Shown here piece after piece: positions 22,938-64,000 of a DNA stretch of 64,000 bases. Positions within the stretch are counted from its first letter, which is position 1; each line of letters begins with the position of its first letter. The notes below the pieces were generated by a model, which was not told the origin of the DNA, ran no database searches, and saw only the letters and a program-made list of their open reading frames with translations. This stretch comes from Sphaerolaimus hirsutus (Eukaryota; Nematoda; Chromadorea; Monhysterida; Sphaerolaimidae): contig OZ038455.1 of assembly GCA_964036195.1 (NCBI GenBank), positions 11,425,855-11,489,854 on the forward strand, in the 5' to 3' direction. The translations under genes and the position numbers were made by a program.

Positions 22938-24227
22938 TGTGCTGACCGTGGCAAAATGGATGGATAAAGAAATACAGAGAATTGATAATTAGGCTCATAT
23001 TTGCACATTTACTTATTTGCACTAATTTACAATTTATACACTATATTAATTTACCACGCAAATTGTATTTCCTGCACTATATTATTTACCCATGGAGAAT
23101 ACTCGATTAGGAAAGTGTTCTATAAGTTATTGATAGGTTTATGTGGAATGTTTAGGTTAAAAGGTCAAATATGTTATTATTAGGTGTATTAATATAAAAT
23201 TAGGCTCATTCAACTCGCCGTAATTTTCTGATCATGATTATACATACATTTGCATAGTTTACTTGCAGTTTACAAAAGTCAAATCTTGTAAATATTTACG
23301 TGCTGCGTAGTTATCTAGGCCAGCGTCCTAATGGAGAAATAGTGCCCTGTATGCAACTAGCATTTACTTTACAAAGCCCTTCGCATAGGTATAATTGTCA
23401 TAACCCTGTTCACAACTATTTATATTTACTTAATAATTATAATACCTTGCTCAATCGAATATATTATAAACTCTGCTCAATTACAATACCCATTTACCTC
23501 AAATAAGTCCCAATTTGCTAGATTATTCAACATACGTTTCCAGGAGATGATTATTATTATCATGTTGAATATACCTTATTCTATTTACGTCATTAGGAAC
23601 ATTTACACTACTATTTACAGTTTTCAAACCCTATTTTATTAGTTCCAATGTGCGTCAATGTTTCCTGACAAATTGAAGCAAATTAGTAAATCGGCCGAGT
23701 TTGCCGACTTCGCGCCTCTCAAGATTAATAGTTTTCTATTAGCCCAATTTGTACTTGGTATTTCTTTACCATAATTGTTTGAATGTATGCACGCGCGGTA
23801 TAAGGCAACTGTTTCGGCTAGATGTGTTTATTTGTTGCATTCATGTCTTATTTGTGCATTTGTATTAGGAAATTACTGTAGCTGTTTTTCTATACGTGAT
23901 TTCCGTGTCTTAGCTACTTTGAGAGTTTTTACTTCAGTCTGCGGACCCCAAACTTCTGAACAAAAATAAGCTAGCGATAGAAACTTCGACTAGGAAGCTC
24001 GCTAGGCTTTGCGCTTTTATATTTGGCTGTATCTGATCAAATAAAGTACCTGAAACAATTTCGAACCCCTTTCAACACGCAACCACGAAATAAACTCAAC
24101 TTGGCTGTCGACAAGTGGACGTACGGCTACAACGGGAAATCAACCACTCTAAAGGCCGTTTCTCACTACGGTCTTGAAGCAGCCGGATTCGGTGGTAGAA
24201 GACGCTGACTTCGGTGGCTTCATCACA
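22938..24227 (+). repeat. 3' LTR of the BEL/Pao element
   Basis: It starts TGTGCTGACC like the 5' copy and ends CATCACA at the AACCA target duplication, giving 1,290 bases. Only the first ~430 are present in the 5' LTR; 23368-24227 is unique here. Either the 5' LTR is shortened or this copy carries extra sequence. Confidence 0.75.
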
Positions 24228-24765: not shown

Positions 24766-26165
24766 AATAACATTACCATAATCCTTCAGTGAGGCCCCCG
24801 GGGCTTAAAAATATAAATTGTGATATGATGCATTTGTGGGTTACTGATTACAATGATTTGAAATATGCACTCCATTCTGACAGTACATTACCATAACCCT
24901 GAAATTGAATCCCTGGGGCCAACTTTCAAATTGTGAAATGATGCATTGTGGGTTTCTAATTGCACTGATTTGATATATAATGCACTCCATTTTGACACTA
25001 CATAACCCTGAAAACTACATGACCATAACCCTGAAAATGAACCCATGGGGCCAAATACTTTCAATTTGAGAAATAATGCATTTTCGGGTTTCTGATAGCA
25101 CTAATTTAAAATATGCACTTCATTTTGACACCACATTACCATAACCCTAAAAATGAACCCCCTGGGCCAAAAACTTTCAAATCATAAAATGATGGATTTG
25201 TGGGTTTCTGAGTGTAACAATTTCAAATATGCCCAGGGCTTCAAAAATTAGAAATTGTGAAATGATTCAATGTGGGTTTCTGATTACACTGATTTGAAAT
25301 ATGCACTCCATTTTGACACTACATAACCCTGAAAACTACATAACCATAACCCTGAAAATGAACCTCTGGAGCCAAAAACTTTCAATTTGTGAAATCATTC
25401 ATTTTTGGGTTTCTGATTGCACTCATTTGAAATATGCATTTCATTTTGACACTACATTACCATAACCCTAAAAATGAACCCCCTGGGCTGAAAACTTTCA
25501 AATCATAAAATGATGCATTTGTGGGTTTCTGATTGTAGCAATTTCAAATATGCACTCCATTTTGACACTAAATTACTAAAACCCTGAAATTGAACCCCTA
25601 GACCCAAAAATTTCAAATTGTGAAATGATGCCTTTTGCAGGTTTCTAATTGCACTGATTCGAAATGACTCAATTTCAACTCTACATTACTGTAAGCCTTA
25701 AATTGAAAATTGAAAATAAATTAGAAATTGTGAAATGATGCATTTCTGGCTTTTTGATTGCCTTGATTTGAAATATGCACTTCATTTTGACACTACATTA
25801 CCATAACCCTGAAAATGAACCCCCAGGGCTAAAAATTTTCAAATCATAAAATGATGTGTTTGTGGGTTTCTGATTGTAGCGATTTCAAATATACACTCAA
25901 TTTTTACACCACATTACTAAAACCCTGATAATGAACCCCTGGGCCCAAAAACTTTCAATTTGTGAAATGATGCATTTGTGGGTTTTTTATTGCAGTGATT
26001 TGAGATGTGCACTCCATTTCTACTCTACATAACCATAACCTTTAAGTCTAACCCCTGGGGCTAAAAAATTGAAGATTGTGAATTGATGCATTTGTGGATT
26101 GATGCTAGCAATTTTTTCAAATATTCATTCTATTTTGACACTACATTACCATAAACCTGAAAATG
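24766..26165. repeat. Satellite array of about 115-130 bp units
   Basis: Roughly eleven units each contain ACATTACCATAACCCTGAAA, a TGAACCCCTGGGGCCAAAAA block, TGTGAAATGATGCATTTGTG and GATTTGAAATATGCACTCCA. The word CATAACCCT(G/A)AAA appears near 24893, 25026, 25141, 25347, 25462 and 25803. Units are diverged. There is no coding content. Confidence 0.8.
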
Positions 26166-26289
26166 AGTTTACAGGAGTTTCCAAATTAGGGACTGAGTTT
26201 ATGGGAGTTTCCAAATTAGGGGCTGAGTCTATGGGAGTTTCCAAATTAGGGGCTGAGTTTACAGGAGTTTCCAAACTAGGGGCTGTGTT

Positions 26290-26840
26290 TACAGGATTTA
26301 GAGGGGACCCCATGGGGTGCCATTTTTGGGGGGTCTCCAGGGGGTGCCATTTTTTGGAGGTACATATGGGGGTGCCATTTCAAGGGGGTCCCCATGGGAT
26401 GCCATTTTTTGGGTGGTCCCCAGCGGTGCCGTTTTTTGTTGGTCCTTAGGGGGGTGCTATATTTTTTTGTGGGGGGGGTCCATAGGGGGTGCCATTTTTT
26501 TTTTTTGGGGGGGGTCCCCAGGGGATGCCATTTTTGGAGAGTCCCCAGGGGGAGCCAACTTTGGGTGGGTCCCCAGGGGGTGCCATTTTTGTGGCGGTTC
26601 CTAGGGGGTGCCATGTTTGGGGGGTCCCCAGGGGGTGCCATTTTTGGGGGGTCCCTAGGGGGTGCTATTTTTGGGGGGTCCCTAAGGGGTGCCATTTTTT
26701 GGTGGTCCTCAGGGGGTGCCATATTTGTGGGGCCCTAGGGGGTCCCATTTTTGGGCGGTTCCCAGGGGGTGCCACTTTTGGGGGGTTCCCTGGGTGATGC
26801 CATTTGGAGGGGGGTCCCCACTGGGGTGTCAGTTTTTGCA
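26290..26840. repeat. G-rich minisatellite, ~27-30 bp unit
   Basis: About twenty degenerate copies of GGGGTGCCATTTTTGGGGGG followed by TCCCCAG. Long ORFs on both strands here are Gly/Pro-rich translations of the repeat and are not genes. Confidence 0.8.
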
Positions 26841-46057: not shown

Positions 46058-47503
46058 GTGCCGGACATGTCGTTGTCCATGGCTGAGCTGTCGACGTCGA
46101 CGACCGAGCAGATTGTGTTGCCCGTGATGCGTCACACGCGTGCACACCCGGTAAATGCTTTGCCCGCCATGGGATTGCACCCGGAGGCAGCTAGGCGGGT
46201 ACAGGACAGATTATTGTATTCTGGCACGCATTGTTTTGCAGGGACGTGCCAAGCCGGTTTGGGTCGTGCTGCACGCCCAATTTCTAATGGCAGGGACGTG
46301 CTGTTGATTTGTCGGTGGCCTCAGCCACGTTGGGCATCGGTGCTGCTCCGAGAAGGACAGCTTGTGAAGGTCAGACGTTTGATGGGAGGTTTTATGATTT
46401 TATGAAGTCACGGTCTCCGGAAATGACTCACCGTGCTATTGTCAGCAATTTGGCGGTTTATTTGGCGCCGCCAGTGCCTGCTATGTAAATTTAATGCTGT
46501 TGACATTGATCGTTATCTTAGTGAAGTTGGGAGTTTGGGCTCATTGGAGCGCAGTAACTTAAGTAATTCTGATCGTTTTGCCGCAACTGGGGAGTGGCTG
46601 GCCCAGCAAACTGACCAAGCCACTCAAAGTGATGAAACTGAACAGTTGGTGCGGGATTTCAAATCGTTGGAAGCGCGTTTTAGGGCATTGCAGAGACAAC
46701 GGTCACCGGACAGTGTCCATGCGGCAGTGACCGCTGCGGTTATGCTGCCTGCGCAGGTAATTCTGGCGGTGCGACTTGTCACAACTGGAAACGAGCAGCG
46801 CGGAAAAGCTGAAGCTGGTGATGGAGCTGGAAACGAGCAGCTTCCCGTGGGCGGAAAAGCGACCGAGCAGCTTCCTGCAGGCGGAAAAGCGTCCATTGAC
46901 GTACTTGCAGATGGGAAAGCTGAGATTGGAAATAACACTAAAATGGCTGATTTTATGGCATTGCCGCCCCCCGAGAAGGATCCTTGGCTGTTAAAGGATT
47001 TTACTAAATAGCCTGGCGCCGCTGCACATGTTTCCCGCGTTGATCTGATGCAGTATTGGATGTTAGCAAAACCTAACATCCTGGATAAAATACCTACTTT
47101 TTCAGGGAAATCAGATGTGCTTACTTTTGCGGATTGGAAACACTCGACACAAATGGCCAGTCTGTCTGTGGCTGACCCAAGCTTGTTGTCACAATTTTGA
47201 ATCGAGGTGTTTACTACAAAGCTCAAAGGTGATGCCTATAAGGTGCTTACCACTATTTCCACACCCGAGAATTTGATTAATTATACGGCTGTGATGGTGG
47301 AACTAGAATCGATTTTCAATGACGTTAAATGCCTATACACCTTTGCGGAGTGGGAAGCTGCGGCGATGTTGCGCGGTGAAACATTCATCGACTTTTACCT
47401 GCGGCTGCTGTCGAAAATGCCTGCAGAGTTCCGCGAATCTGTCGGCTTTGACAGAAAGCTAATTAATAAAAAAGTCGCCGCAGGTGTACTAAATGTTCAG
47501 TAA
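46058..47503 (+). pseudogene. Ty3/Gypsy gag with in-frame stops
   Basis: A single frame runs through the region but is broken by stops at about 46403, 46415, 47009 and 47198. The first part is Ser/Thr- and Gln-rich, with a Gly/Lys-rich internal repeat (GGAAAAGC words, 46800-46920). The capsid-like part reads 'IPTFSGKSDVLTFADWKHST' and, after the last stop, 'FTTKLKGDAYKVLTTIS' and 'LYTFAEWEAAAMLRGETFID', resembling Gag of Ty3/Gypsy elements with the F-x-G...[FW] motif. The frame ends at 47503, where the inverted RT segment begins. Confidence 0.7.
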
Positions 47504-48596
47504 CATCATCGCTGCAGATCAAAATGTCATCAATGTACGCGCGTACCCATGCGCGCGACAAATTCTCATTTAAATTAACCTGCATGAGGTTAACAAGGCA
47601 CATGAAAGTCGCTCCAGCGTTGCATGTACCGAATGGCATGCGCGTGTAGCGGAACTGCCCTAGACTACACACGAACGAGGTTTTTTCGCATGAGTCCTCG
47701 TTAGCTAGCGGGACATTATAGTAACCGTGGCGGATGTCAATAGCCGTAAACACTTTGCGGCCCGCGAACTCAGCCAAAATCTCTTCAATTCTGGGCAACG
47801 GGTAACTATCAATTTTCGTAATTAAGTTAACCAGCTTAAAATCAACACAAAAGCGCCAATCATGTGCGCCTTTGGGTGCAATTGTGATCGGCGATGCCCA
47901 GGGTCCATCAGAGTGTTCGATGATGCCCTCTTGTAGCACGGATGAAATTGTTTTGTGAATGAATTCCCGCTTGTGCGCCGGTTCATATCTGGCGGCTTGT
48001 TTGATCGGCGGGTGGTTAGGGTCTGTCAAAATTGCATGTGACACAAGCGGCGTGCAGCCCACATCATATTCCGTGCATGGAAAAATGTCATGATATTCAG
48101 TCAACAAATCTTTGAATTTTTCCGCTTCCTCTGGGGACAAATCTATTCGATTGGCGGTAGGTAAATTTTCCAAAATGAATTTGACGCGTTCTGCTGTTGT
48201 CATTTCTGGTGCTGCTGTCTTTTCATTCTGATCAGGTGGCACCGGCATGTGTACCACCTTGGCACAAATAGCTGGCTCTTTTGTATCTGCGGTTGATTGA
48301 TCATCAGAAATCGTGGAACCCCCGAACAGCGAATGATACACTGGGTTCTCAAAAACTTTCGACAAATTGTGTCCGGCACTGAACAATTGAGCGTTAGACA
48401 ACAGGCACACTTCAGCAACTGCCGTTCCTTCTTTCAAGTCGACAGGTGTGTCTGAATCGTTGAAGAAGGTTAAGTGAACTGGTGACTGGACATTTGTTGG
48501 CACTGTAGTGTTATACATCTGTAAGTCATGATTTTCTTTCAATTCCGAGTTGTAGTAGAGCAGCGTGCATTGTTGCCACAATTTTTTATGTGGCAA
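47463..48596 (-). pseudogene. Ty3/Gypsy protease-linker and RT fragment, inverted within the element
   Basis: An intact 377-codon minus-strand frame inside a plus-strand element. It reads 'DLLTEYHDIFPCTEYDVGCT' (start of RT), 'GIIEHSDGPWASPITIAPKG', 'WRFCVDFKLVNLITKIDSYP', 'FTAIDIRHGYYNVPLANEDS', 'TRMPFGTCNAGATF' and 'AYIDDILICS' (catalytic YxDD). It stops about 20 residues after the catalytic motif, so thumb, RNase H and integrase are absent. It either inverted within this copy or belongs to another element. The palindromic word GCCACAATTTTTTATGTGGC lies at its 5' boundary (48574-48593). Confidence 0.75.
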
Positions 48597-52400: not shown

Positions 52401-52609
52401 TTTTTACAAAAAATCAGAATCATGCATGCAAGGCCAGAAAAATGTTATAATTAGACCTATACATGAAAAACCTGTGACAAATTTTTCCCTTACTTTTCAA
52501 AAGTTGCATGCAGTTGTAGGTGGAAATATGGCTAGCCAGCCATGCGTAAAAACATAATGACAATTTTGTGCAGACACTCCGACGACTCGAGGACGACCAT
52601 GTGTGACCG

Positions 52610-52760
52610 AATGACGGCCCACGGTGCACAGGGAAGTCACAGTGAACGTGCGGTTCGCTGTGCACTGCAAACCCGCCAACGAAGCCACAGCCCCAGGACG
52701 GTACGCCCGAATGGACATTACTGTGGCCATGATTTTGTTAAGTATTTTTCTTTCCGTTAA
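52610..52760 (+). other. Possible short exon, low support
   Basis: A GC-rich island in AT-rich DNA. After GTGCACAG| the plus strand reads 'EVTVNVRFAVHCKPANEATA' and 'PGRYARMDITVAMILLS' without simple-sequence bias. No donor or family was recognised. It could be host coding sequence or the edge of the retroelement LTR. Confidence 0.2.
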
Positions 52761-54199
52761 TTACGTAATTACTTCCCGTGTGATGTTTAATTTTCATTTC
52801 CTGTTTTATTAATTAAGCTAAGTCAGTTACCCGCATTTTAAGTTAATTAAGTGATTACTTTCGTTTTTCTAAATGCACTTTCCAATACATAATTTCGAGT
52901 GTTAATTCCTTTTTCGGTTTTCATCAAGTTTACATATTTGGTCAAAAGGGTGCAGTGTCTGGGAATGGGTTAGAAAAGCTTTAAAGTTTCCTGTTAAGCT
53001 AAAAGGTGTCGACTCTGTTAAACACCTTGGCGCCCCGATAGATAACATTCAGAAAATTCCCCGACCAAGTGCAATTTTTATTTAGGACTAGGTAATGGGT
53101 GGAAAAGTGGCTACACGGCAATTATTGTCGACATGCGACTGCAAGACACATGCAGAGCACAATTTACAGTGAAGAGCACAGCAGTGCCGATTAATTATTC
53201 CCATCACCCAGGGTGATTGGTGAACTTATAAGTGCTAGTGTCTTTGTAGCGTGTGTTCAGGCCCAAAGCTCCAACCCTTACCCGGCAATGCAATAACCTT
53301 GAACAAACCCCCGCAAATGAGCGTTCTTTCTGTGGCCTTGGTCGGGCGCGCTATAAAATATTTTTCACCTAAAGGGGCGCAGGTTGATAACACGTGTCAC
53401 ACCACTTGCTCTAAAAATGTACCGTAACCCTTGAATAGAAACCCAGTTTATGACACTCACCTCTGAGGTAATTTGTATTTTAATTGCGTCATTGTTAATT
53501 ACAGTTATTTCACGTTTGGTTTAATTCACGTTTGCGTCTTTTTTCTTATTTAATTATTTACTTTCCCACATTTAATTAATTTGCTCGTGCCTTGTACGCT
53601 ACGTTAATGGTTTTCCAGTGATCATTGGTTTCGCTTTATACTTCTTTCATTACGGTTAATTGTTGTGTCTCAGATTTAGTATTCATTTCTATTATGGTAG
53701 ATTTTTGGTGATTATAAAACGCGCTGATTTTACATTTTTTCACCCACTAGAGGCTATACGACTCACTTGAGCTATTGTGAAATTGACTCTGATTATATTG
53801 CTAAATAAAGTTTCCCGTGAATCCAACTTGGTCCCCCTGAAGCATACTAACTGCTTGAATTTTATTTTGAATTTTATTAATTACGGCTTTTATTTTATTT
53901 ACGGCTTATTAACAAGTAATCGAAGTAAACCGCCGGCTGCAGTTACGAAAAGGATTGGTAAGTTGCCATGTCCGTCCTCGGGAACTGTCAGGACCCCAAG
54001 GGGTACTGGCGCTGTTCCTGATTTGCGTGTTAAATCCCCGTACCATAAAAACCAACATTTATCTAATTACGCACGCAATTAAAAGCGCAAAGGGACCGGA
54101 ATTTACAATTCTCCACCGCGGCAAAATCGACGAGTGGCGTATTTTTGTGGTAAAAACGGAAACTAGTAAAATTAGTAAAAACGTAAAATATCTGACAAC
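52760..54199 (+). other. Probable 5' LTR/leader of the second env-bearing element
   Basis: Non-coding, AT-rich sequence directly upstream of a primer-binding-like TGGTAGCG at 54200. TTAATTA-rich style resembles the stretch after integrase (63269-63495). The matching 3' LTR would be beyond the window, so the LTR limits cannot be set from a repeat. Confidence 0.35.
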
Positions 54200-54217
54200 T
54201 GGTAGCGTAGCGAGTGG
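54200..54217 (+). other. Candidate primer-binding site
   Basis: TGGTAGCGTAGCGAGTGG lies 56 bases before the first gag-frame codons and begins with the same TGGTAGCG as the BEL/Pao site at 13571. CTGACA just before it would suit an LTR end in CA. Confidence 0.4.
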
Positions 54218-54255
54218 TTTCCTAAGCAAGCCATAAAGTTTTCTGTCCGGGGCGC

Positions 54256-55035
54256 TTGATCAACGCCTCTACAAAAAACGGCTTCACGGATAACGAATCA
54301 CCCCAAAGGGAATTGAGATCGAGGGGGCCAGCAAGCTTACAAGGGGACACCATAGAACAAGTTTGGCACGCTGCGTTGGAGAAGCAAAAACAAGCACGAA
54401 GGCGCGCGCGACAACAAAAGGCTGGGCAAGAAGTGGACGCACAACTTGCTGCAGCTGAGAGTCAAGCAGAAGACAGTGAGTCGAACGATTCGGTTAACCC
54501 TGAAACAGACGCACCGGAAGCGCTAGAGGAGAGTGAAAGTCAACGCTGGTCTGGACAGACAGCTAAGGATACACCGGTAATCAGGTTATCAACGGTTGAA
54601 GGCGCAGGGCCCGCGCCAGACAGTTTTAGTCAGTGGAAAATGCCAGCTGTACCGGCAGCGGCACGGCAGCTAACGTCCAGTGCAGAAGCTGAAGAAGCGC
54701 CTGGGACAAGTAGACAAGCTGCAGGAAAGGAAGCAGGAAAGACAGGTAAGTGGTCTAAGCTTCGAAGGACATTGGGTTGGAGCGCGGGCAGCTCATCCAT
54801 ATCGCCTGGAGTGCGATCGGGTTCTGAAGTCGGTTCAGATGGATACGTTGGTGACAGCGAGCCTCTAGGGCAGCCGTCGATCCAACGTGATTATCCCTTG
54901 ATTGCAGCTGAGCTTGGAGCTACTGCAGATCAATTTCCCGTGATTGAAAATGATAATAGACCTGGACCTGGTGCAAGTAACGCCGTCCTGTGCACAAAAA
55001 AGCATGTGAAGCTGCAAAGAAATGGGCAAACATGA
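54256..55035 (+). CDS. N-terminal Gag region of the Gypsy-like element
   Basis: An open frame of 259 codons that starts inside the leader (non-ATG first codon TTG at 54256). The protein is hydrophilic, with an Ala/Arg/Gln-rich helix ('EKQKQARRRARQQKAGQEVD'), then acidic and Ser/Pro-rich segments. It has no recognised domain, as expected of a matrix-like or N-terminal Gag extension. At 54996-55002 it meets A-AAA-AAG, and the other frame continues into the capsid part; this frame closes eleven codons later at 55033-55035. Confidence 0.6.
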   Translation: MINASTKNGFTDNESPQRELRSRGPASLQGDTIEQVWHAALEKQKQARRRARQQKAGQEVDAQLAAAESQAEDSESNDSVNPETDAPEALEESESQRWSGQTAKDTPVIRLSTVEGAGPAPDSFSQWKMPAVPAAARQLTSSAEAEEAPGTSRQAAGKEAGKTGKWSKLRRTLGWSAGSSSISPGVRSGSEVGSDGYVGDSEPLGQPSIQRDYPLIAAELGATADQFPVIENDNRPGPGASNAVLCTKKHVKLQRNGQT

Positions 55036-56279
55036 TGAGTCAGGCGAGACCGGTTGGCGCATTTTCACAGAATGGTGAAGCAGGGGACTTGCGCATGGTG
55101 GCACTAATTAAAACTGCTATGAATTTATGGGGAAGTGACCCAGTGGCCGAGGTACCTAGGGTGGAACATTATTTGAGGGAATTCGAAGCGCACCACAGCT
55201 TACATAGCGACGATGTAGCTGATCTGGCGACTGCGTACCAGCAGTATAATCAAGCCCTACAAAATCAGAATGCAACGCTGGGGGGAAATTCACTGGCCAG
55301 TGGTCAGCAGCCGATAGTGCTGACCAATGGTCAAGCAGCGCCCTTACAATCATCAACGGCACCAGCGGCGCCCCCGTCGGCAGCTGGAACAAATCAGGTG
55401 AGAACGGTTACGCAGCGACGCACTCGATCCCGCTCGCCGGCGTCCTCAAGAAGCTTGTCAGCTGCATCTGAAGTGGCAAGGCCCACGGACCCGGGACAAA
55501 ATTGGCAATTAGAACAAAGCAATGCGGCAGTCATTACAGCCCTAGCACAACAATGTGGATATTTTCGCAGCAAACCAAATGAGGGTTTCAGGGAGTGGAG
55601 AAGGAGCTGGGACACGGTATGTGATGCGCTGCGCATAAAATTACAGGAGCGGAAGCCGCTGGTAAAATTGTTTTTGAAAGGCAGTGCCAGAGCCATTTTC
55701 AACACTCGATACAGAGAATTGCGCGACCTGAACTACAAGGACATGATGCAAGCACTGGAGAAGTTCTATGAAAATCCAAATGATAAGCACCATGCACAGA
55801 GAGAGATTTTTGAGACGCAACAGGGCGCAGATGAGTCGGTACTGGAATGGGCGGTACGTTTGGAAAAATTGATAAAACGCGCCTATCCAGGCATGGGTCA
55901 TGAAAAACGAGGTGACACATGCATGATAAAATTCCATGGAGGACTGAGAAATGAGATTCGGCGCAATGTACCTGTCACGGCTTCTATCACCTGGAAGGAG
56001 ATGGTTGACAACGCACGTGCGCAGGAGAGCTTTCTGGAAGCAGAACAGAGCCAGAATAAGGGAGAAAAATCCAAACAGGATGTGGTTGCCAGCGCTACCG
56101 ACAAGGTGATGGACAGGTTGATGGCTCTAAACATGCCCGCCATGGCTGGACTGCCGTCCCAGGCCGACAAGACGTTAGAGACAATGGAACAGAAAATGAC
56201 TGAGAGTGTTGCCAAATTTGACTCTGTGCACCAAGAGATAGCGAAGAAATTAGCGCAACTGGGCGCGTTGGAAGGTTAA
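54990..56279 (+). CDS. Gag capsid region of the Gypsy-like element
   Basis: A frame of 429 codons overlapping the end of the N-terminal Gag frame, offset by one base. After a Gln/Ala/Ser-rich linker it contains 'GYFRSKPNEGFREWRRSWDT', 'LFLKGSARAIFNTRY', 'MMQALEKFYENPNDKHHAQR' and 'GADESVLEWAVRLEKLIKRA'. These resemble the retrotransposon Gag capsid (Gag_2/retrotrans_gag type) with its W...L.G.A...Y...L...F order. It ends at TAA 56277-56279, after which the same frame stays open into the zinc knuckle. Confidence 0.75.
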   Translation: MHKKACEAAKKWANMMSQARPVGAFSQNGEAGDLRMVALIKTAMNLWGSDPVAEVPRVEHYLREFEAHHSLHSDDVADLATAYQQYNQALQNQNATLGGNSLASGQQPIVLTNGQAAPLQSSTAPAAPPSAAGTNQVRTVTQRRTRSRSPASSRSLSAASEVARPTDPGQNWQLEQSNAAVITALAQQCGYFRSKPNEGFREWRRSWDTVCDALRIKLQERKPLVKLFLKGSARAIFNTRYRELRDLNYKDMMQALEKFYENPNDKHHAQREIFETQQGADESVLEWAVRLEKLIKRAYPGMGHEKRGDTCMIKFHGGLRNEIRRNVPVTASITWKEMVDNARAQESFLEAEQSQNKGEKSKQDVVASATDKVMDRLMALNMPAMAGLPSQADKTLETMEQKMTESVAKFDSVHQEIAKKLAQLGALEG

Positions 56280-57452
56280 CTTTTGGGATTGAATAGGGAC
56301 CCCCCTAAATTGCCCCCACGCAAATTTGACAAAGGATGTTGGGAATGTGGCTCTGAAGAACACATCAGATATGAATGTCCCAAACTCACCCCAGAACAAA
56401 GGGAACAGTACTTTAAAAGGAGCCGCGGCGGCGGAGCATCCAGAGGAAATGGACGCGGGCGCGGCGGAGGACAACGTGGTGGCTATCAGAGAAATGACCA
56501 AGCCCAAGCGATGCAGCCAGGTATGATGCCCATGCAATATGCATATCCACAGTGGCAACCAGCTCAGCCGATGCCTGTGCAGCCAGCGCAGACGGTACAG
56601 AGGGCTGGTGATATGAACATGCAACCGCAGATGATGGCATATCAAACGCCGCCGGCCAACTGGATGGCTATGGGACCAGATGGGCGCATGCAACAATATA
56701 ACATGCAACCAGTACAGGTAAGTAACCCCCACGTAGAGTCGTTGAACCCCACACGAGTGACCAGTACGACTGGAATGACCATGCAGGTGCGCGAAGATGA
56801 TCGCTGCATGATGACACGTCCCGTTAATAAATTTATCCCTGTGATGCAAGGTTTGGAATTAGAAGCAGAGGAACCTGACGAACTGGAACCCGAAGAACCG
56901 CAGCGCACTGCGGGAATGCATGTGCTCGCGCAAGAGCGTGAATTCTGGATCAAACCATGGGCATACATGCGAACCGAAAAAGGTTATTTGTTTCGAACTA
57001 CCTGGTTGGCCTTTTTGCGCAGGATCGGAATGCATGATTTGAGAGAAACGGACTGTACGCTGTGCCCTGCAGACGACCACTCGGACACGCTGACTGAGGT
57101 GCCCCTGGACGTACTCATGAACATCAGTCTGGACCCGTTTTTGTACGCCACGCCGGCCGCTCTGCCGCCGCGTACTGGATCCAGCAACCAAATAGACAGG
57201 TATATGGGTTTTCTGTCTACTGAGGAAGGGGTGCGCCCCGCGCCGCGCGCGTACTCAGAACCCCCCTACATGCCCCAGGTCGCACAGTCACTGTTTTTTG
57301 TATTGGCAGTTGGGTTAATTATAATGGGATTAGCCTTATTACCGGGCGCGGGCGCGACTACCATGCCCTCGTTTCCATTGCTATGCAGTGACTTGACGGA
57401 CCACTACGATTTATACACGTACCCCCCCTACCAAATTGCACGGCCATTGTAG
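56280..57452 (+). CDS. CCHC nucleocapsid, Met/Gln-rich linker and start of Env
   Basis: In the same frame as the capsid ORF after its TAA. A single zinc knuckle 'CWECGSEEHIRYEC' (56338-56379) and an Arg/Gly-rich stretch (56415-56490) form a nucleocapsid. A long Met/Gln/Pro-rich linker follows. From 57286 it reads 'VAQSLFFVLAVGLIIMGLAL', a signal-peptide-like helix comparable in position to the leader of the BEL/Pao Env. The frame closes at 57450-57452, just after a seven-C run (57422-57428); a different frame then carries on with the glycoprotein. Confidence 0.7.
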   Translation, partial: LLGLNRDPPKLPPRKFDKGCWECGSEEHIRYECPKLTPEQREQYFKRSRGGGASRGNGRGRGGGQRGGYQRNDQAQAMQPGMMPMQYAYPQWQPAQPMPVQPAQTVQRAGDMNMQPQMMAYQTPPANWMAMGPDGRMQQYNMQPVQVSNPHVESLNPTRVTSTTGMTMQVREDDRCMMTRPVNKFIPVMQGLELEAEEPDELEPEEPQRTAGMHVLAQEREFWIKPWAYMRTEKGYLFRTTWLAFLRRIGMHDLRETDCTLCPADDHSDTLTEVPLDVLMNISLDPFLYATPAALPPRTGSSNQIDRYMGFLSTEEGVRPAPRAYSEPPYMPQVAQSLFFVLAVGLIIMGLALLPGAGATTMPSFPLLCSDLTDHYDLYTYPPYQIARPL

Positions 57453-57829
57453 ACACTACGGCGTCATTAGAACGGCCACGAAAATTGACACTGACAATTT
57501 ACAAGCGAAATATGGTAGAATATCGTGCAGCAGCACACAGGTGTGTGGCCTCTACCAGAACTGCAAGGACGTATCAGAACTTCTGGGGCGACGTCACGCT
57601 GGAAAAGTTTGATTCTAACCCCCGATCTGTGGGCGCCGCCGAATGCGAAGGCATGATTAAATATCACAAATGCAATGATGGGCCCATGACTCCTGTGAAT
57701 GACCTGGACAACGCATGGGAAACGCAATACCCCACCAATGTTAGTTATTCAGGACATGGATTGTATTGTTGCAAATGGGTAATTGAAATGACGCCACACT
57801 GTGGGCTGTTTCGCGGGAAGTACGAATGA
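57429..57829 (+). CDS. Envelope-like glycoprotein, N-terminal segment
   Basis: Open in the frame that starts at the C-run. It carries R-C (57541), F-W-G-D (57581-57592), an A-x-C (57644), and C-C (57767-57772) followed by a cysteine near 57800. These match, in order and rough spacing, the R-C, F-W-G, A-C and C-C landmarks of the BEL/Pao Env (20787-21003). It ends at TGA 57827-57829, overlapping the ATG of the next segment (ATGA). Confidence 0.65.
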
Positions 57830-59418
57830 GATATGGAGCCAACACCATGCAAAGCACGCTGGGTGAGGTCAGCAAGTGCAATTATGAAATGGGTGCATGT
57901 ACGCTAGAAGACGGCAGCCAATTGACATGGAAACCAAACCCGAAGGCGGAATGTCCATATGAAAAATGGCGTGAAATGCATGGACGCATTAGACAGGATA
58001 TCTGGCTAGCCGATGATCATACGTTATCACTGTCTTTCAGAGCGCATGAAGAGGTTGAATCATGTGGCATCAAATTATGGAAATCAGATCAGGATATCGT
58101 AGTGGCACCATTTGAAAAAGCAGTGATTCGAAGCGTCAGACAAAAAAGAGCGCAAGGTCGACCCACGCTGGGGATAGTGAGCGCAGGACAATTAGCAGCC
58201 AGCATGCAGGCGGTGTACGAAACAGCAGAACAAACCATGCGTGCCCAGGCCGTAGCCACCTGCAAGAATGTGCAACACTTCCAAGAATTTGTGCGCCTGG
58301 CTATGAGTGAACATGCAACTACGACAGCCCGCTGGTACATGAATGATAATGAAATAATTGCTAAACCTGCGCCGGACGGATTTTTGGTTCACAAATGTTT
58401 CGCGGTAAAAACGTACAAGATAATGAAAGAGGAAAAGTCCCCAGAATGTTATGAAACAGTACCTGTGCAAGTTCGTGTGCATGGGCAGAATGTGACCTTA
58501 CACATGAACAGGTTTACAAACATTTTGCACTTTCAAGCGATCCCGGGATCATGCACCAATGCGCACAATCGTGTGGTAATGTTAAATGGACAATGGTACA
58601 ACTACCTGCCGGAGGTAGGCGGCCTGGAACACTTACCCATGTATAACACACACAGTTTCCCGCAGAAATGGCAACAGGAAAAGGTTAAGGATGTGCACCA
58701 TCAGATTTTTGCCGCCACGACCATGTACAATTTGTCAGAATTATTGCCGACAACCACCCTAAACGACGTATGGCACGCATATTCGATTGTGCGACAAATT
58801 ACGCAGGGGGCGGAGCCGAAGGTGGAATCTCACATGCAAAGGCATCGAACCTTGGCAAAATCGGTATTGGCACTGGGATGGTGGGATTTTGACACCTGGC
58901 GCACCTGGCTACAAGTATGGATTTACCTGATATGTGCACTAGTCACCATGCAATATTTACTAGCCGCGCTCATGGCTGCAGCGCTGGAAATGGCCGTGAC
59001 TTTGGTGAACCGGGCAAAGGAAAAAATAAAAAAACGACCAAAGACAGGAGAAAAGTCAAATATCATCGTCGAACTGGCTGAGGACCGCCCTAGCGAACAG
59101 GTAAAGGTAAGAACGGTAATTAACCCGTGCGTGGGAATGCCAAATGGCATGCCCGCACTCACGGGCGCGCGTCGTTTTCCCGCTATACAATACAGTATCA
59201 ACAGAAAATGCGATCTGGAAGAAGAATCGGTGTGCATGATCACTTTCTCGCCGGAAGAAAGAGACAACATACATCAAGTAGCCAATCGACGTGAAGAAAT
59301 TGTGCATGTGTACTACAGTCCGTCCATTACCATAACCATCGATGGGAAAGAATATCGAAGGTGTCTACTGGACACAGGCGCCATGCGTTCATTATGCAAC
59401 AGAGATGTGCTGATGTGA
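57826..59418 (+). CDS. Envelope-like glycoprotein, main segment, fused to the protease N-terminus
   Basis: 530 codons from ATG 57826. The ectodomain has C-x(5)-G-x-C ('CNYEMGAC', 57880), 'SQLTW' and C-P-Y-E (57949), a C-x(n)-C block (58399-58450), and C-T-N then 'LNGQWYNYL' (58552-58610), each with a counterpart in the BEL/Pao Env. A transmembrane stretch follows at about 58915-59005 ('WIYLICALVTMQYLLAALMA'), then a basic cytosolic segment. The same frame then reads 'YRRCLLDTGAMRSLCNRD' (59353-59406), the active site of a retroviral-type aspartic protease, and ends at TGA 59416-59418. Env would be a membrane glycoprotein on particles or on the host cell. Being upstream of and in frame with the protease is unusual. 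Confidence 0.75.
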   Translation: MRYGANTMQSTLGEVSKCNYEMGACTLEDGSQLTWKPNPKAECPYEKWREMHGRIRQDIWLADDHTLSLSFRAHEEVESCGIKLWKSDQDIVVAPFEKAVIRSVRQKRAQGRPTLGIVSAGQLAASMQAVYETAEQTMRAQAVATCKNVQHFQEFVRLAMSEHATTTARWYMNDNEIIAKPAPDGFLVHKCFAVKTYKIMKEEKSPECYETVPVQVRVHGQNVTLHMNRFTNILHFQAIPGSCTNAHNRVVMLNGQWYNYLPEVGGLEHLPMYNTHSFPQKWQQEKVKDVHHQIFAATTMYNLSELLPTTTLNDVWHAYSIVRQITQGAEPKVESHMQRHRTLAKSVLALGWWDFDTWRTWLQVWIYLICALVTMQYLLAALMAAALEMAVTLVNRAKEKIKKRPKTGEKSNIIVELAEDRPSEQVKVRTVINPCVGMPNGMPALTGARRFPAIQYSINRKCDLEEESVCMITFSPEERDNIHQVANRREEIVHVYYSPSITITIDGKEYRRCLLDTGAMRSLCNRDVLM

Positions 59419-60549
59419 CACAAGGAAAAGGCTACTAAGCATGATGAGGTTTCGCCTATTGGAGCCCTCAGGTGTGCAGCAGACTCGAAACTTTTGGTAT
59501 TGGGACAGATGGAAATACCGGTAACGATGGGAAACCACACTTTCGGGATTGTGTTTCAGGCGGTGAATGGATTAGCTGGTGAAATTCTAATTGGCGCCGA
59601 TGTCTTGCGGCACATGGTAGTGGATCTACCTGCAAGGGAACTACGGATCCCTACGGCTAACGCGATAATCCCATTTGACAACCCCGACCCGGAAGTGCAG
59701 CAGCGCAGAATTTACGCTATTGTGAACGAAAAGATAGAAATTCTGGCTAGACATGAAGCGCTAGTAACGGCGAAATTATCTGCCCCCATGGATGAAAAGT
59801 TATTTACTGTCATGGGATTGGATACGGTCAGCGAACGCTGTGGAGTTATGGCTGCTTCAGCGGCCTATGAAACCAATGCCCCTGTGTTTCAGGTGAGATG
59901 TGCAAATGTACGAAATCAGCCCGTAGTGCTACAGGTAGGACAGCGCATTGCAGTGGTCGAGCCAGTGGACTGCGTGCTGAAGGTGAAACCTGGAGACCCC
60001 CCCGCTGAATGGGTGAAGCAGTGTTATGACAGAGATGTGTGTCGGCAAGTTCAAGCAACTGAACCTCCCCCCAAAGTAGCCGAAGACAAATTAGGACCCC
60101 CACTGCAAGTTGCATGCCCAGACGGACACGTAATGGAATTTACAGTGCCAGAAACTTTGACGGACGAACGCAGAGAGGAACTGAAAAAGGTGATTTTGCA
60201 GTACAAAGAAGCTTTTGCTCGACACAAGTATGACATCGGCTACAGCGAATTAGTGGACTACCGGTTGCAACTAGTGGACAAAAAACCAATTGCCTGCAGA
60301 ATGTACCGATTGAGTCTGGATGATCAGCAATACTTAGAAAATCATTTGAGATGCCTCATTGAGCACGACATAGTGGAACCCAGTACGAGCCCGTATTGTG
60401 CCCCCACGCTGGTGGTATCCAAACCGGATGGAGCAAAGCGGATGGTAATTGATTACAGACGCCTGAACGCTGTTTTGCACGCTCCCCAATTCCCATTACC
60501 CCGCTTAGATGAAACAGTCGAATCTTTATGTAGCTGCAAGTATTTTTAG
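59419..60549 (+). CDS. Protease C-terminus, linker and RT N-terminus of the Gypsy-like element
   Basis: The same frame as the preceding segment continues after its TGA. 'GEILIGADVLRHMVVDLPAR' (59578-59637) is the second half of the protease fold (I-[LI]-G-x-[DN] motif). A linker follows, then the RT fingers: 'SELVDYRLQLVDKKPIACRM', 'HDIVEPSTSPYCAPTLVVSK' and 'GAKRMVIDYRRLNAVL'. The frame closes at 60547-60549 inside RT, within a T-run at 60542-60546; another frame carries the rest. Confidence 0.75.
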   Translation, partial: HKEKATKHDEVSPIGALRCAADSKLLVLGQMEIPVTMGNHTFGIVFQAVNGLAGEILIGADVLRHMVVDLPARELRIPTANAIIPFDNPDPEVQQRRIYAIVNEKIEILARHEALVTAKLSAPMDEKLFTVMGLDTVSERCGVMAASAAYETNAPVFQVRCANVRNQPVVLQVGQRIAVVEPVDCVLKVKPGDPPAEWVKQCYDRDVCRQVQATEPPPKVAEDKLGPPLQVACPDGHVMEFTVPETLTDERREELKKVILQYKEAFARHKYDIGYSELVDYRLQLVDKKPIACRMYRLSLDDQQYLENHLRCLIEHDIVEPSTSPYCAPTLVVSKPDGAKRMVIDYRRLNAVLHAPQFPLPRLDETVESLCSCKYF

Positions 60550-63268
60550 CAGTGCCGACATAAATCAAGCTTTCTATAACATTGCTTTGCATCCAGATGA
60601 TCGACACATTACGTCATTTAGGAATGTTTTTGGACAATTTCAACTGAAACGTTTACCAATGGGATTAAAATGCTCCCCTAGTTTAGCGCAACGTTGTTTT
60701 GAATTAGCTATGGCCGGCCTAATACATCGAAATGTGCTATTATACATCGACGATTTACTAATTTATAGTGCAACCTGGGAAACACATTTATACGACATAG
60801 GGCAGGTGTTGGAAAGGTTAATTAGAAATAATTTCAAAATTAGTCCAAAAAAGTGTTTTTTCACACGCGTTACAGCCGTACGTTTTTTGGGTTTTATGAT
60901 TGGCCGGGACGGCGTGTGTGTACCGGATGATAAACAGCACATAATTCAGGACTGGCCGGTACCCACCACCGTAAAAGAGGTTAAGGGTTTTCTAGGAGCT
61001 ATAGGTTTTTTTAGACGCATGATTCACCGATGCGCAGAATTAGCAGTACCTTTGTCAAATCTCACGCGTACGGGACCAAGAGAAAATTACAACAGTGACA
61101 CCCCCGTGGATCTGACATCGAAACCCAAGGCACTGGAAGCTTTTCATAAGCTCAAGGAAGCATTATTAGGAAGCCCATGTTTGCAATTTCCCGATCCCAA
61201 GCGCATGTTTATAATTATCACGGACGCCTCTAAAATCGCTGTTGCAGGCGTGCTAGCACAACGAGCAGAGGACAAAAAAATACTACATGCGTGTGCCTTT
61301 TTCAGCCGGAAGTTAGGTGCAACCCAGAGCAAATGGCCAGCAATTTCGCTGGAAGCATGTGCAATTTACGAAAGTATACGCAATTGGCATTGTTATCTGG
61401 CGGGACGGCCCTTTGAAGTCTGGACGGACGCCAAGAGTATTTCGTGGGTAAAGAATCCTAATTTAGAGACCACCCCGCACACCATGCTACACAAATTTGC
61501 TTTAGCAATTACGCCATATCAAATCACGTTCAAGCATTTGAGGGGAAAAAGCAATGAATTAGCAGACGCGTTATCTAGAAGGCAGGATGCGCCAGTGGTA
61601 TTCGATGAGAAAAAGGACCTGGATGAGGCCTTTGAGCAGTTTGCACAAGTTACGTGCTGTGAAATCGCTATCCCGCACGACAAGCAGGTTACGGTAGCTG
61701 TGGCGAGCAGGGCAGCGTACCAGCCAATCAGCGAGCGAAGCGGCGTAAACGAGGAGGCGGAGTTACTGCGACCAATCAGCGCCCGGACGTGCGGGCGAAA
61801 AGAGGAGGAGTCTCCTTTGCTGCGAGAGCGGCAGCGGAATGCGGAAGCGCCTGGAACTGGAACAATGGCTGGTGGTTCAGGCGCCAGAAATGAAGTTGTT
61901 CCGGGTTTAACGAGTGTAACCAAGCGCAGCACAATAATGGCGCTACCTCCCATGACCCCAGTTGATAAGTTGAAACAATTGCAAGCTGAAGAACCGTATA
62001 TAGCTGCAACTATAGAAGTGTGCCGCGCAGATAATTTTTACAGTGCCGCACCGTATTTTATTGATCAATACGGTCTACTACGTCGCCAGGCGGGAACGTC
62101 CCAGATACCAGGTATTCAGTTATACGACCCCGTGTGTATTCCGTCGGAATTAGTTCCATTCGTATTAGAATTAGCTCACAATCACCCCACGGCGGGCCAT
62201 TTGGGAATAATAAAAACATTTGAAAGGTTGCAGGAGTTCGCGTGGTTTCCAGGAATGCGGCCAGAAAGTGCGCGCTGGGTTGCTACTTGCCCTTCGTGCA
62301 ACGCCAAGAAAGGTCTCAGAGCGGCAATGCGAACTCAAATGGTGTGCCGCCAGGTAGCCAAAAGGCCAGGTGATGTGATAGCAGTAGACGCAATAGGACC
62401 TTTACTAACCACAAAACGCAGAAACCAACATGTGTTAGTATTTGTTTATCAGTGTACACGTTTTGGAATTGCTGTGCCTGTCCCCGACATAAAACAAGAC
62501 ACAGTATCATTTGCATTTTTGCTGCACATTTTGCCCATATTTAGTGTGCCGGCTATTATACTCAGTGATAACGCCCCTAGCTTTACTGAGGGCACTTTTG
62601 CCAAGCTTTTACAATATTTGAATGCGACCCAACACAGGTCTTTTGCATACACCCCCAAGAGTAACGGAATGGTGGAACGTAGGAATGGTGTTCTGATGGA
62701 AATAGTATCTCACTACGTAAATCGTACACATGACGATTGGGACATACATTTAGGCGCCGCTGTACATGCGTACAATACATCGAAACACCCGTCTTTGCAA
62801 ACCACCCCCTATGTGTTGCTATTTGGCAAGCCTGCTGCGTCTATGTGGGAGCGTATGATCAAGCCTCCCCCTGACACTGAGGCATTGCCCTCATTGCCGC
62901 ATAAGCGCGCTCTTATAAATGAGTTAGGCGCGCGTCTGACTACAGCACGCGAAGCTGCGCACACCGCTTTAGCAAAAGCGCAGCAAAAGGAACAATTTTA
63001 CGCCAAACGCCGTGCGCGTCGATTAAATGTGCAACGCGGGCAAGCGGTACGCGTGTACACGCCGCGTATTACACAGTTGACGGGCCCTAGTAAGAAATTC
63101 GCGCCTCGCTTTATTGGTCCGTATGAGTGCATTGATTATGCCCACCCATTAGTGACTTTGTTCAACAATATTAATAAGAAAATATATGTCGTTCATGCAG
63201 ATCGTTGCAAGGCAACCAGTGAATATTTAATCCCCCCTTCTTACAGTGAATTATACGGCGACGACTAA
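60509..63268 (+). CDS. RT palm, RNase H and integrase of the Gypsy-like element
   Basis: A long frame of 919 codons. 'ADINQAFYNIALHPDDRHIT' begins the RT palm; 'FQLKRLPMGLKCSPSLAQRC' and 'VLLYIDDLLIYSA' (YIDD, about residues 79-82) follow. RNase H includes 'FIIITDASKIAVAGVLAQ' (about 235), 'WPAISLEACAIYE' and 'VWTDAKSI'. Integrase has an HHCC finger 'HNHPTAGHLGI ... CPSCNAKK' (about 556-600) and catalytic residues in 'VIAVDAIGPL' (about 626), 'ILSDNAPSF' (about 687) and 'GMVERRNGV' (E about 722). The C-terminus contains a G-P-[YF]-E-C-I strand typical of Ty3/Gypsy integrases. It ends TAA 63266-63268. The linker between RNase H and IN is long and Glu/Arg-rich. Confidence 0.9.
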   Translation: MKQSNLYVAASIFSSADINQAFYNIALHPDDRHITSFRNVFGQFQLKRLPMGLKCSPSLAQRCFELAMAGLIHRNVLLYIDDLLIYSATWETHLYDIGQVLERLIRNNFKISPKKCFFTRVTAVRFLGFMIGRDGVCVPDDKQHIIQDWPVPTTVKEVKGFLGAIGFFRRMIHRCAELAVPLSNLTRTGPRENYNSDTPVDLTSKPKALEAFHKLKEALLGSPCLQFPDPKRMFIIITDASKIAVAGVLAQRAEDKKILHACAFFSRKLGATQSKWPAISLEACAIYESIRNWHCYLAGRPFEVWTDAKSISWVKNPNLETTPHTMLHKFALAITPYQITFKHLRGKSNELADALSRRQDAPVVFDEKKDLDEAFEQFAQVTCCEIAIPHDKQVTVAVASRAAYQPISERSGVNEEAELLRPISARTCGRKEEESPLLRERQRNAEAPGTGTMAGGSGARNEVVPGLTSVTKRSTIMALPPMTPVDKLKQLQAEEPYIAATIEVCRADNFYSAAPYFIDQYGLLRRQAGTSQIPGIQLYDPVCIPSELVPFVLELAHNHPTAGHLGIIKTFERLQEFAWFPGMRPESARWVATCPSCNAKKGLRAAMRTQMVCRQVAKRPGDVIAVDAIGPLLTTKRRNQHVLVFVYQCTRFGIAVPVPDIKQDTVSFAFLLHILPIFSVPAIILSDNAPSFTEGTFAKLLQYLNATQHRSFAYTPKSNGMVERRNGVLMEIVSHYVNRTHDDWDIHLGAAVHAYNTSKHPSLQTTPYVLLFGKPAASMWERMIKPPPDTEALPSLPHKRALINELGARLTTAREAAHTALAKAQQKEQFYAKRRARRLNVQRGQAVRVYTPRITQLTGPSKKFAPRFIGPYECIDYAHPLVTLFNNINKKIYVVHADRCKATSEYLIPPSYSELYGDD

Positions 63269-63495: not shown

Positions 63496-64000
63496 ATGGC
63501 TTCGGCCTCTCGCAAACGCCCATTTGAAGGTGCAGACGCCCCGCCCATCAAATCCAAGGAAACAAATACCCATGGTGCCTGCGGCGGTGGAACCATTCCC
63601 CCGCGACAACTTTACCGCGCGCAGCAGATGCAAAATGGACCGGAAATCTACCCCAGCAGAGGGAAATTTGAAGGTTGGGTAGACCGAGTGTATATTGACA
63701 CGGGTGCCGACGAGCATGTCGAGTATCAGTGCCATGTGAGAATTTCTGAGCAAACGATGGCGATACTCAGTGAAAACGAGCAGTGGGTGAATGCGGATGA
63801 GGCATATCCGTATTTTTACTACTCAAATAAGCGGGCCAAGGCGGCTAGAGACAAACGGACCACCCAGCTGGTGGATCTGTGCGCAAGAATTCAGAAACAA
63901 CACCCCTCGATGTTTCTGCCCCTGGTGCGCCACGGAATGCGTTTTTCGGCGACCGCGATTGCACAGAAAATAGAAAACCCGAGGTACTGGGAGTTCACCG
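63496..64000 (+). CDS. Unidentified 3' ORF of the Gypsy-like element (runs off the window)
   Basis: The ATG at 63496 opens at least 168 codons, still open at the window end. It sits 228 bases after the integrase stop, where env normally lies in retroviruses. The N-terminus is basic ('MASASRKRPFEGADAPPIKS', possibly a nuclear-localisation-like start). The middle reads 'GWVDRVYIDTGADEHVEY', whose D-T-G-A-D resembles a retroviral protease active site, although the element already has one at 59370. The rest is helical and charged ('NKRAKAARDKRTTQLVDLCA', 'ALFLPLVRHGMRFSA'-like end). I do not recognise a family. The absence of stops over 505 bases and a well-placed ATG argue for a real gene. Confidence 0.6.
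   Translation, partial: MASASRKRPFEGADAPPIKSKETNTHGACGGGTIPPRQLYRAQQMQNGPEIYPSRGKFEGWVDRVYIDTGADEHVEYQCHVRISEQTMAILSENEQWVNADEAYPYFYYSNKRAKAARDKRTTQLVDLCARIQKQHPSMFLPLVRHGMRFSATAIAQKIENPRYWEFT

What the first reader, a model, noticed from the sequence alone, without database searches (positions are those of the whole stretch)
56280..59670. Env-like glycoprotein encoded between nucleocapsid and protease in a Ty3/Gypsy-type element
In the sequence, the CCHC knuckle (56338), a signal-peptide-like helix (57286), a Cys-rich ectodomain (57540-58620), a TM helix (58915-59005) and the protease D-T-G-A (59370) follow each other, and the TM protein is in frame with the protease. Established knowledge: retroviruses, errantiviruses and BEL/Pao elements place env 3' of pol. 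An Env 5' of PR-RT-IN would need a different expression strategy, for example a Gag-Env-Pol precursor crossing a membrane. This would be a new genome organisation if it holds in other copies.
Basis: partly seen in the sequence, partly recalled or inferred. Interest (0 to 1): 0.88.

Follow-up and report, generated by a model that had tools for sequence, protein, structure and literature searches.

The report
Retrovirus-like element with envelope mid-polyprotein
An invertebrate genome carries well over a hundred copies of a virus-like jumping element that keeps its cell-entry protein in the middle of its main protein chain instead of at the end, and selection has kept that protein working; one similar layout was already known from flatworms.

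Summary
The window carries most of a ~17 kb Ty3/gypsy LTR element ordered Gag-NC-Env-PR-RT-RH-IN-ORF3; most of ORF3 and the 3' LTR lie beyond the window. The Env segment passes Pfam's cut-off for Monjiviricetes (chuvirus-type, gB-like) fusion glycoproteins. The host genome holds 170 NC, 189 Env and 191 PR sites of this family; 46 of the 49 NC-PR pairs that could be listed have the same spacing and none is short enough to lack Env. In 47 of 80 scored copies Gag, NC, Env, PR and the start of RT form one open frame of about 2,227 codons. Env is under strong purifying selection (dN/dS 0.02-0.05 in 7 of 8 copy pairs tested). A conserved TTT-TAG-C suggests +1 frameshifting inside RT, and ORF3 is a UPF1-like SF1 helicase. 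The window copy itself is broken.

The layout is not wholly new: Burro elements of planarians also have Env in frame between Gag and PR (Arkhipova & Yushenova 2019). This is a smaller type with a +1 site and a helicase; whether it shares ancestry with Burro was not testable. A giant family in the same genome also has Env before RT. I read it as a new variant of a known kind. How Env is expressed is unproven.

The parts
52421..54197 (+). 5' LTR; the repeat shared with the 3' LTR (window scale 67481-69257, outside the window) is 1777 bp and 100% identical; alignment to two other copies puts the LTR start near 52515, so the exact 5' edge is uncertain
54200..54217 (+). primer-binding site TGGTAGCGTAGCGAGTGG two bases after the LTR, the same in the 8 copies printed
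   Evidence: assignment as PBS by position
54226..56276 (+). Gag, in two frames in this copy (54226-55032 and 54981-56276); Retrotrans_gag PF03732 E 3.5e-7, PNMA 1.3e-6 in the second; no Pfam match in the first
56337..56378 (+). CX2CX4HX4C zinc knuckle (NC)
56717..56718 (+). candidate splice donor CAG|GTAAGT, phase 0 (GT kept in 8 of 8 copies)
   Evidence: inference
57286..57357 (+). internal signal peptide / first TM helix of Env
   Evidence: hydrophobicity by eye; no predictor run
57358..58914 (+). Env ectodomain; read in more than one frame in this copy (end of 56280-57449, then 57392-57826, then 57787-59415), one frame in intact copies; PF24664 over 57838-58617
58138..58149 (+). furin-like RQKR within Env
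58915..59005 (+). C-terminal transmembrane helix of Env
   Evidence: only well-predicted part of the model
59063..59200 (+). Env/PR boundary with almost no synonymous variation among 8 copies; candidate splice acceptor AACAG|GTAAAG at 59100/59101, phase 0
   Evidence: inference
59371..59379 (+). protease active-site D-T-G
59419..60546 (+). rest of PR and N-terminal RT (to ...CSCKYF), same frame as the Env TM protein; no convincing Pfam match of its own
60541..60550 (+). TAT TTT TAG C: proposed +1 frameshift site between ORF1 and the RT-RH-IN frame, present in 8 of 8 copies
60509..63265 (+). RT (from about motif A on), RNase H, integrase
63496..64000 (+). start of ORF3 (1,322 codons, open, continues beyond the window; L009:483-4448), UPF1-like SF1 helicase in its C-terminal half

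Best explanation
This is a defective copy of a recently active, env-bearing Ty3/gypsy element (an endogenous retrovirus in layout). Shown by computation: Gag, NC, a gB/chuvirus-like Env, PR and the first part of RT lie in one frame of about 2,227 codons in intact copies; the frame stops at TTT-TAG-C and the rest of RT-RH-IN follows in the +1 frame; a separate helicase ORF3 lies 3' of IN; Env evolves under protein-level constraint. Inferred mechanism: the chain is made at the ER. The Gag-NC part stays in the cytosol. An internal signal sequence threads Env into the lumen, where signal peptidase and then furin (RQKR) cut it. The C-terminal TM helix brings the chain back to the cytosol, so that PR, RT and IN emerge there and PR frees itself. 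This is the topology that flaviviruses use for C-prM-E (recalled). A fraction of ribosomes shifts +1 to add RT-RH-IN. A spliced RNA that skips Env may supply Env-free Gag-Pol. Particles bearing Env would let the element move between cells.
For: Env: PF24664 above cut-off; profile match to five other Env sequences of this genome, probability 95%, E 4e-8, 341 columns; 17 Cys, 4 sequons, RQKR. Family-wide order: NC 170, Env 189, PR 191 places, reversed-pattern control 0 each; 46 of 49 listed NC-PR pairs at 2803-2844 bp. One frame: 47 of 80 scored copies have 2217-2228 codons. Selection: Env dN/dS 0.02-0.05 in 7 of 8 pairs tested, 0.15 in the other. Recent activity: LTR identity 99.4-100% in 8 of 10 copies examined, 4-bp target duplications by eye in 6 of those 8. 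Frameshift site in 8 of 8 copies. ORF3 helicase AAA_12 E 5.8e-24, pN/pS 0.066 over 10 copies.
Against: No RNA or protein data. The AlphaFold model of the window's Env piece was useless (mean pLDDT 36.7), and the Env/PR piece matches no PDB sequence. No homologue of the Env region was found among the scored proteins of about 632-2012 aa. A 1:1:1 Gag:Env:Pol output would be odd for a retrovirus. Synonymous variation drops at both Env borders, which points to RNA signals such as splice sites rather than pure polyprotein expression. ORF1 has no ATG for its first 310-321 codons in 9 of 9 copies, though that stretch evolves like coding sequence, so the start of translation is unexplained.
Confidence: 0.6

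Rival explanations
1. Env is in effect an intron. Splicing from a donor in NC (56717/8) to an acceptor at 59100/1 makes Gag-Pol without Env, and a second spliced RNA from the leader to just 5' of the signal peptide makes Env alone. The continuous frame is then a by-product or a minor source of Env. This need not exclude the main model.
For: Donor and acceptor are both phase 0 and keep GT and AG in 8 of 8 copies. Synonymous diversity falls from mostly 0.1-0.25 to 0.009 at the acceptor and to 0.05-0.08 before the signal peptide; 4 of 500 codon shuffles reach the lowest value. No alternative reading frame explains the dip. An ATG stands just 5' of the signal peptide.
Against: No copy of this spliced junction was found in the genome at up to 3 mismatches. 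No listed NC-PR pair is near the roughly 450 bp expected for such a copy (0 of 49). L007, an intact copy, has a weaker donor. The acceptor lacks a clear pyrimidine tract, and the matching donor and acceptor bases are an 8-base direct repeat that chance could give. The donor region shows no clear dip of its own. Only 8 related copies were compared.
Confidence: 0.35
2. A one-off accident: a glycoprotein fragment inserted into one gypsy copy.
For: The window copy is broken at several points.
Against: 189 Env and 191 PR sites, fixed spacing in the listed pairs, and purifying selection.
Confidence: 0.01
3. The element is a small or stripped member of the Burro group, so the layout was inherited once and not evolved twice.
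For: Same Env position as described for Burro. A giant family in this genome, Burro-like in frame size, also has Env before RT in one frame, and its Env is distantly related to this one.
Against: RT only 28% identical to the giant family and not grouped with it in the tree, where both are long, unresolved branches. Frame of 2,227 instead of about 5,000 codons. No Burro sequence was available to compare.
Confidence: 0.2
4. The segment is a membrane glycoprotein kept for another role, such as superinfection exclusion or anchoring of Gag, and not a fusogen.
For: No fold or function test succeeded.
Against: Pfam fusion-glycoprotein match, furin-like site, signal-like and TM helices, homology to the Env of a BEL/Pao element in env position.
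Confidence: 0.1

Closest known systems
Burro (GYPSM1) giant gypsy-like elements of planarians (Arkhipova & Yushenova 2019, PMC6431247, section 7)
   Same: Env in frame between Gag and PR; Env reported to hit mononegavirus fusion glycoproteins; described as likely integrated proviruses
   Different: Burro has an ORF1 of about 4,900-5,100 aa with ankyrin, BIR, BCL2-like and other motifs and exceeds 30 kb; here the frame is 2,227 codons and the element about 17 kb, with a +1 site inside RT and a UPF1-like helicase as ORF3. Sequences not compared.
Anakin, Pao elements with a chuvirus glycoprotein in mosquitoes (Dezordi 2020, PMC7642597)
   Same: Chuvirus-type glycoprotein captured by an LTR element
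   Different: Anakin is BEL/Pao; env-like proteins of BEL-Pao elements lie downstream of pol. The follow-up survey (PMC10084718) found Gypsy fragments near such glycoproteins but no clear capture by Gypsy. The BEL/Pao element at 13-23 kb of this window has the Anakin-like layout; the focal one does not.
Errantiviruses (gypsy of Drosophila)
   Same: Ty3/gypsy pol with an env
   Different: env is a separate ORF 3' of pol (recalled) and likely derives from baculovirus (PMC12440569, introduction)
SF1 helicases fused to insect retrotransposons (Morozov 2017, PMC5563155)
   Same: An SF1 helicase carried by a retrotransposon
   Different: Those are of plus-RNA virus type and sit in LINEs or Ty1/copia fusions; this is a separate UPF1-like ORF in an env-bearing gypsy element

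Membership tests
Ty3/gypsy (Metaviridae) | pol order PR-RT-RH-IN and RT closest to Ty3 | tested here: met
   order PR motif, RT, RH, IN; best PDB match Ty3 Gag-Pol 2.2e-55; homologues carry gypsy-type Pol domains
Ty3/gypsy (Metaviridae) | LTRs TG...CA with 4-6 bp target duplication | tested here: met
   4-bp duplications read by eye in 6 of 8 LTR pairs; not seen for the window copy and one other
Burro | env in frame between gag and PR | tested here: met
Burro | about 5,000-aa ORF1 with BIR, ankyrin, BCL2-like or MATH motifs | tested here: not met
   frame 2,227 codons; none of these domains in the window's Gag, NC, Env, PR and Pol pieces by Pfam
Burro | phylogenetic grouping of RT/IN with Burro | not testable with these tools
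   no Burro sequence held; the giant family of this genome did not group with the focal RT (unresolved)
Monjiviricetes / chuvirus-type fusion glycoprotein | profile match above the curated cut-off | tested here: met
   31.7 bits vs 27; the shorter stretch 57841-58830 scores 31.5 bits; the separate piece 57392-57826 has no match
Class III fusogen fold | gB/VSV-G-like structure | tested here: inconclusive
   AlphaFold model pLDDT 36.7, no fold search run
Anakin (Pao + chuvirus glycoprotein) | BEL/Pao pol with glycoprotein 3' of pol | tested here: not met
   focal element has gypsy pol and Env 5' of PR
Errantivirus | env as a separate ORF 3' of pol | tested here: not met
   the 3' ORF is a helicase

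The most novel reading that the evidence does not exclude
A lineage of living or very recently living retrovirus-like elements, separate from Burro, that makes its class III fusion protein as an internal, ER-threaded domain of a Gag-Env-Pol chain, shifts +1 in the middle of RT, and uses the usual env slot for a UPF1-like helicase that might protect its long, early-stopping RNA from nonsense-mediated decay. In the same genome the same Env family sits before PR in two gypsy-type lineages and after IN in a BEL/Pao lineage.
Probability: 0.35. Interest if true: 0.82.

Novelty: new variant of a known kind. Interest (0 to 1): 0.62.

Why it matters
An Env in the middle of the polyprotein breaks the gag-pol-env rule taught for retroviruses. 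In the papers seen here Burro, a giant planarian element, was the one reported case. A compact second type, with over a hundred copies, near-identical LTRs, intact frames and measurable selection on Env, makes the expression problem testable: internal signal peptide or splicing around Env. It also shows a chuvirus-type glycoprotein in a gypsy element, which Dezordi 2023 had looked for and not clearly found, and links such an element to a UPF1-like helicase.

Tried and rejected
Protein search with a 1,150-aa NC-Env-PR piece, scored on Env: the 7,995 candidates sharing most words were scored, none at E 1e-3. Protein search with the helicase: 7,994 scored, none. Scans of viral contigs with the Env/PR piece and with RT-IN: no relative. 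PDB search with the Env/PR piece: none at E up to 10. Structure prediction of the window's Env piece aligned with the BEL Env: useless, so no fold search was run. RT tree to place the focal and giant families: unresolved, long branches. Search for a spliced NC-PR junction in the genome: none. Alternative reading frame as cause of the synonymous dip: rejected. One-off insertion: rejected. The host was not identified; its COX1 reads through in the invertebrate mitochondrial code and looks nematode-like to me, by eye only.

Papers. PMC6431247: passages and the whole of section 7. PMC12440569: abstract and passages. PMC7642597, PMC10084718, PMC6338049, PMC10309623, PMC5408684, PMC5563155: passages only. 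Answered searches of the paper library; the library holds only openly licensed papers, so absence there proves little.

Dropped rows. For the pairing of NC, Env and PR places I used the listed places on the large contigs only: NC on C1-C15 (83; for only the 44 without mismatch on C1-C9), Env on C1-C9 (91), PR as listed; NC places on C16 and small contigs and Env places on C13-C15 were left out, and the lists themselves are cut by the tool.
Full report
WHAT IS THERE. The window is part of a 348 Mb, 762-contig genome. From 52421 to the end it holds an LTR element. The 5' LTR is 52421-54197. Its partner lies at L009:4468-6244, which is 67481-69257 on the window scale; the shared stretch is 1777 bp and 100% identical. 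[quoted passage not shown] After IN comes ORF3, 1,322 codons from its ATG. The window copy spans 16.8 kb; seven other copies read at both ends span 17.5-17.6 kb.

THE ENV SEGMENT. The Env/PR piece 57787-59415 matches PF24664, Monjiviricetes_fusion, at E 5.5e-8 and 31.7 bits against a cut-off of 27; the separate upstream Env piece 57392-57826 matches nothing in Pfam. The Env/PR piece finds nothing in PDB sequences. The Env of an intact copy has 17 Cys, 4 sequons and an RQKR site. A profile of two copies matches a profile of five Env sequences from other elements of this genome with probability 95%, E 4e-8 over 341 columns. An AlphaFold model was too poor to use. The fusion-protein identity therefore rests on sequence profiles, not on a fold.

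THE WINDOW COPY IS BROKEN. Its gag changes frame once, a stop stands before the knuckle, Env changes frame twice, and a stop follows the protease motif; RT-RH-IN and ORF3 are open. Its LTRs are identical, so it entered recently, perhaps already broken and helped by proteins of other copies (inference). Its LTR edge is uncertain and no target duplication was seen.

OTHER COPIES. One search scored 80 of 563 first-look candidates at 97-98% identity (100% for the window itself); 79 of 80 have no stop in the matched stretch, and 47 of 80 have an open frame of 2217-2228 codons, one of these 47 being the copy with a TGA. In copies read on the 5' side this frame opens 29-63 bases after the LTR, and it ends at the RT stop. 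Of the eight fetched (L001-L008), two are open through NC-Env-PR-RT start, one has the same stop after PR as the window, and five including the window copy have frame breaks or stops. Pattern searches of the whole genome with up to 3 mismatches found NC at 170 places, Env TM at 189 and PR at 191, with 0 in the reversed control each time. Only the first places are listed. Of 44 listed NC places with no mismatch on contigs C1-C9, 31 have a listed Env match within 6 kb downstream on the same strand. Of 91 listed Env places on C1-C9, 56 have a listed PR match 480-502 bp downstream; of 83 listed NC places on C1-C15, 49 have a listed PR match, 46 at 2803-2844 bp, the others at 2384, 2525 and 5942. 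Places without a partner here may have one in the unlisted part or with more mismatches; Env-less copies among them are not excluded. None of the 49 lies near the roughly 450 bp expected without Env.

AGE. LTR pairs were found in 8 of 10 copies with separate boundaries: 99.4-100% identity. In one more the match ran on into a tandem neighbour, and one had none found, with 200 N in its 3' stretch. Six of the 8 show a 4-bp duplication by eye. The family is young, but copies differ by 1-6% in the Env region, so several sublineages have been moving.

SELECTION. In the 8 tested of the 28 possible pairs of the eight copies, Env from signal peptide to TM has dN/dS 0.02-0.05 in seven and 0.15 in one, with dS 0.05-0.30. 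PR-RT start has 0.02-0.07 in seven and 0.41 in one. The linker between TM and PR is looser: 0.14-0.28 in six pairs, 1.44 in one and undefined in one. Keeping a frame open would not by itself conserve the protein, so Env is probably needed for the element's spread (inference). ORF3 has pN/pS 0.066 over 10 copies.

THE +1 SITE. ORF1 ends within RT at TAT TTT TAG C, just before motif A (recognised by eye), and the next frame continues the RT in +1. The site is in 8 of 8 copies. It resembles known +1 sites where a slippery codon precedes a stop (recalled). No test of frameshifting was possible.

SYNONYMOUS DIPS. In 40-codon windows over 8 copies, synonymous diversity is mostly 0.1-0.25. It falls to 0.05-0.08 just before the signal peptide, to 0.009 at the Env/PR border around 59074, and to 0.044 before the frameshift site; shallower lows of 0.08-0.1 occur elsewhere, for instance after the knuckle. 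The lowest value is reached by 4 of 500 codon shuffles. The shuffle ignores relatedness and gene conversion. At the Env/PR border nonsynonymous changes remain, mostly in single copies, and no other reading frame accounts for them. This hints at RNA signals at the borders of Env. A phase-matched donor and acceptor are there, but no spliced copy was found, and their shared bases form an 8-base direct repeat that chance could give.

START OF ORF1. In 9 of 9 copies the frame lacks an ATG for its first 310-321 codons, yet this stretch has pooled pN/pS 0.17, against 1.5 and 2.0 in the shifted frames of the 7 copies of equal length. Translation must start without AUG or from a spliced or trans-spliced leader. 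This is unexplained.

OTHER ELEMENTS OF THE SAME GENOME. The window also holds a BEL/Pao element (LTRs 13043-13473 and 22938-23368, 99.8% identical) whose Env, PF24664 E 2.3e-16, sits 3' of integrase. A PF24664 search scored 68 of 1,557 first-look candidates in the genome, all above the cut-off, and rang in 0 of its 14 control genomes. By profile range, and for the fetched loci also by clustering, 28 of the 68 belong to a giant family with frames up to 6,806 codons. In one of them, L044, Env is followed in frame by a protease (PF13650 E 9.8e-9); the stretches of the other four giant-type loci given to Pfam showed no protease match, being cut short of it or broken. For all 28, one search lists an RT match 2.8-4.3 kb downstream on the same strand, and in 19 of the 28 the open frame has the same length for Env and RT, so they very likely share one frame. 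The focal RT is 28% identical to that RT; a tree did not resolve their relation.

COMPARISON. Env in frame between Gag and PR is known from Burro (PMC6431247, section 7), so the arrangement is not categorically new. The focal element lacks the giant frame and extra domains of Burro and adds the +1 site and the helicase; whether it shares ancestry with Burro could not be tested. Anakin has a chuvirus glycoprotein but in BEL/Pao (PMC7642597), and a survey of arthropod genomes found no clear capture by Gypsy although Gypsy fragments often flanked the glycoproteins (PMC10084718). SF1 helicases in insect retrotransposons are known (PMC5563155) but of another kind and place. A search for the phrase gag-env-pol with retrotransposon and envelope found no paper in the library.

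VERDICT. The claim of a wholly new organisation is not upheld. The element is a compact, recently active, selected example of a rare layout, with an open question of how Env and Pol are made.

Noticed in passing
window 13043-23368: BEL/Pao element with LTRs 99.8% identical; pol and Env in one 2,374-codon frame, Env (PF24664) 3' of IN; gag and pol separated by a TGA in this copy while a number of related copies have frames of about 2,900 codons.
   Followed up: partly
L044-L047, L052, L059 (G000 C1, C6, C7, C9): Giant gypsy-like family with single frames of up to 6,806 codons, Env before RT (and before PR where read); Burro-like in layout and size.
   Followed up: partly
G000, many places: A further RT family, about 31% identical to the giant family's RT, with frames of about 3,730-3,790 codons in dozens of copies; not examined for Env.
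   Followed up: no
L009:483-4448 (window scale 63496-67461): ORF3 is a UPF1-like SF1 helicase under purifying selection; with ORF1 stopping early in the RNA, a role against nonsense-mediated decay is conceivable.
   Followed up: partly
5' stretches of nine copies (L010-L026): ORF1 frame opens shortly after the LTR but has no ATG for 310-321 codons, although that stretch evolves like coding sequence.
   Followed up: partly
G000:C6:7572294 and 7588171: Two copies of the focal family in tandem about 16 kb apart, apparently sharing an LTR.
   Followed up: no
window 47466-48596, minus strand: A third, distantly related gypsy-type RT fragment.
   Followed up: no
window 24928-26838: Long tandem repeat arrays (units of 116, 30 and 27 bp).
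   Followed up: no
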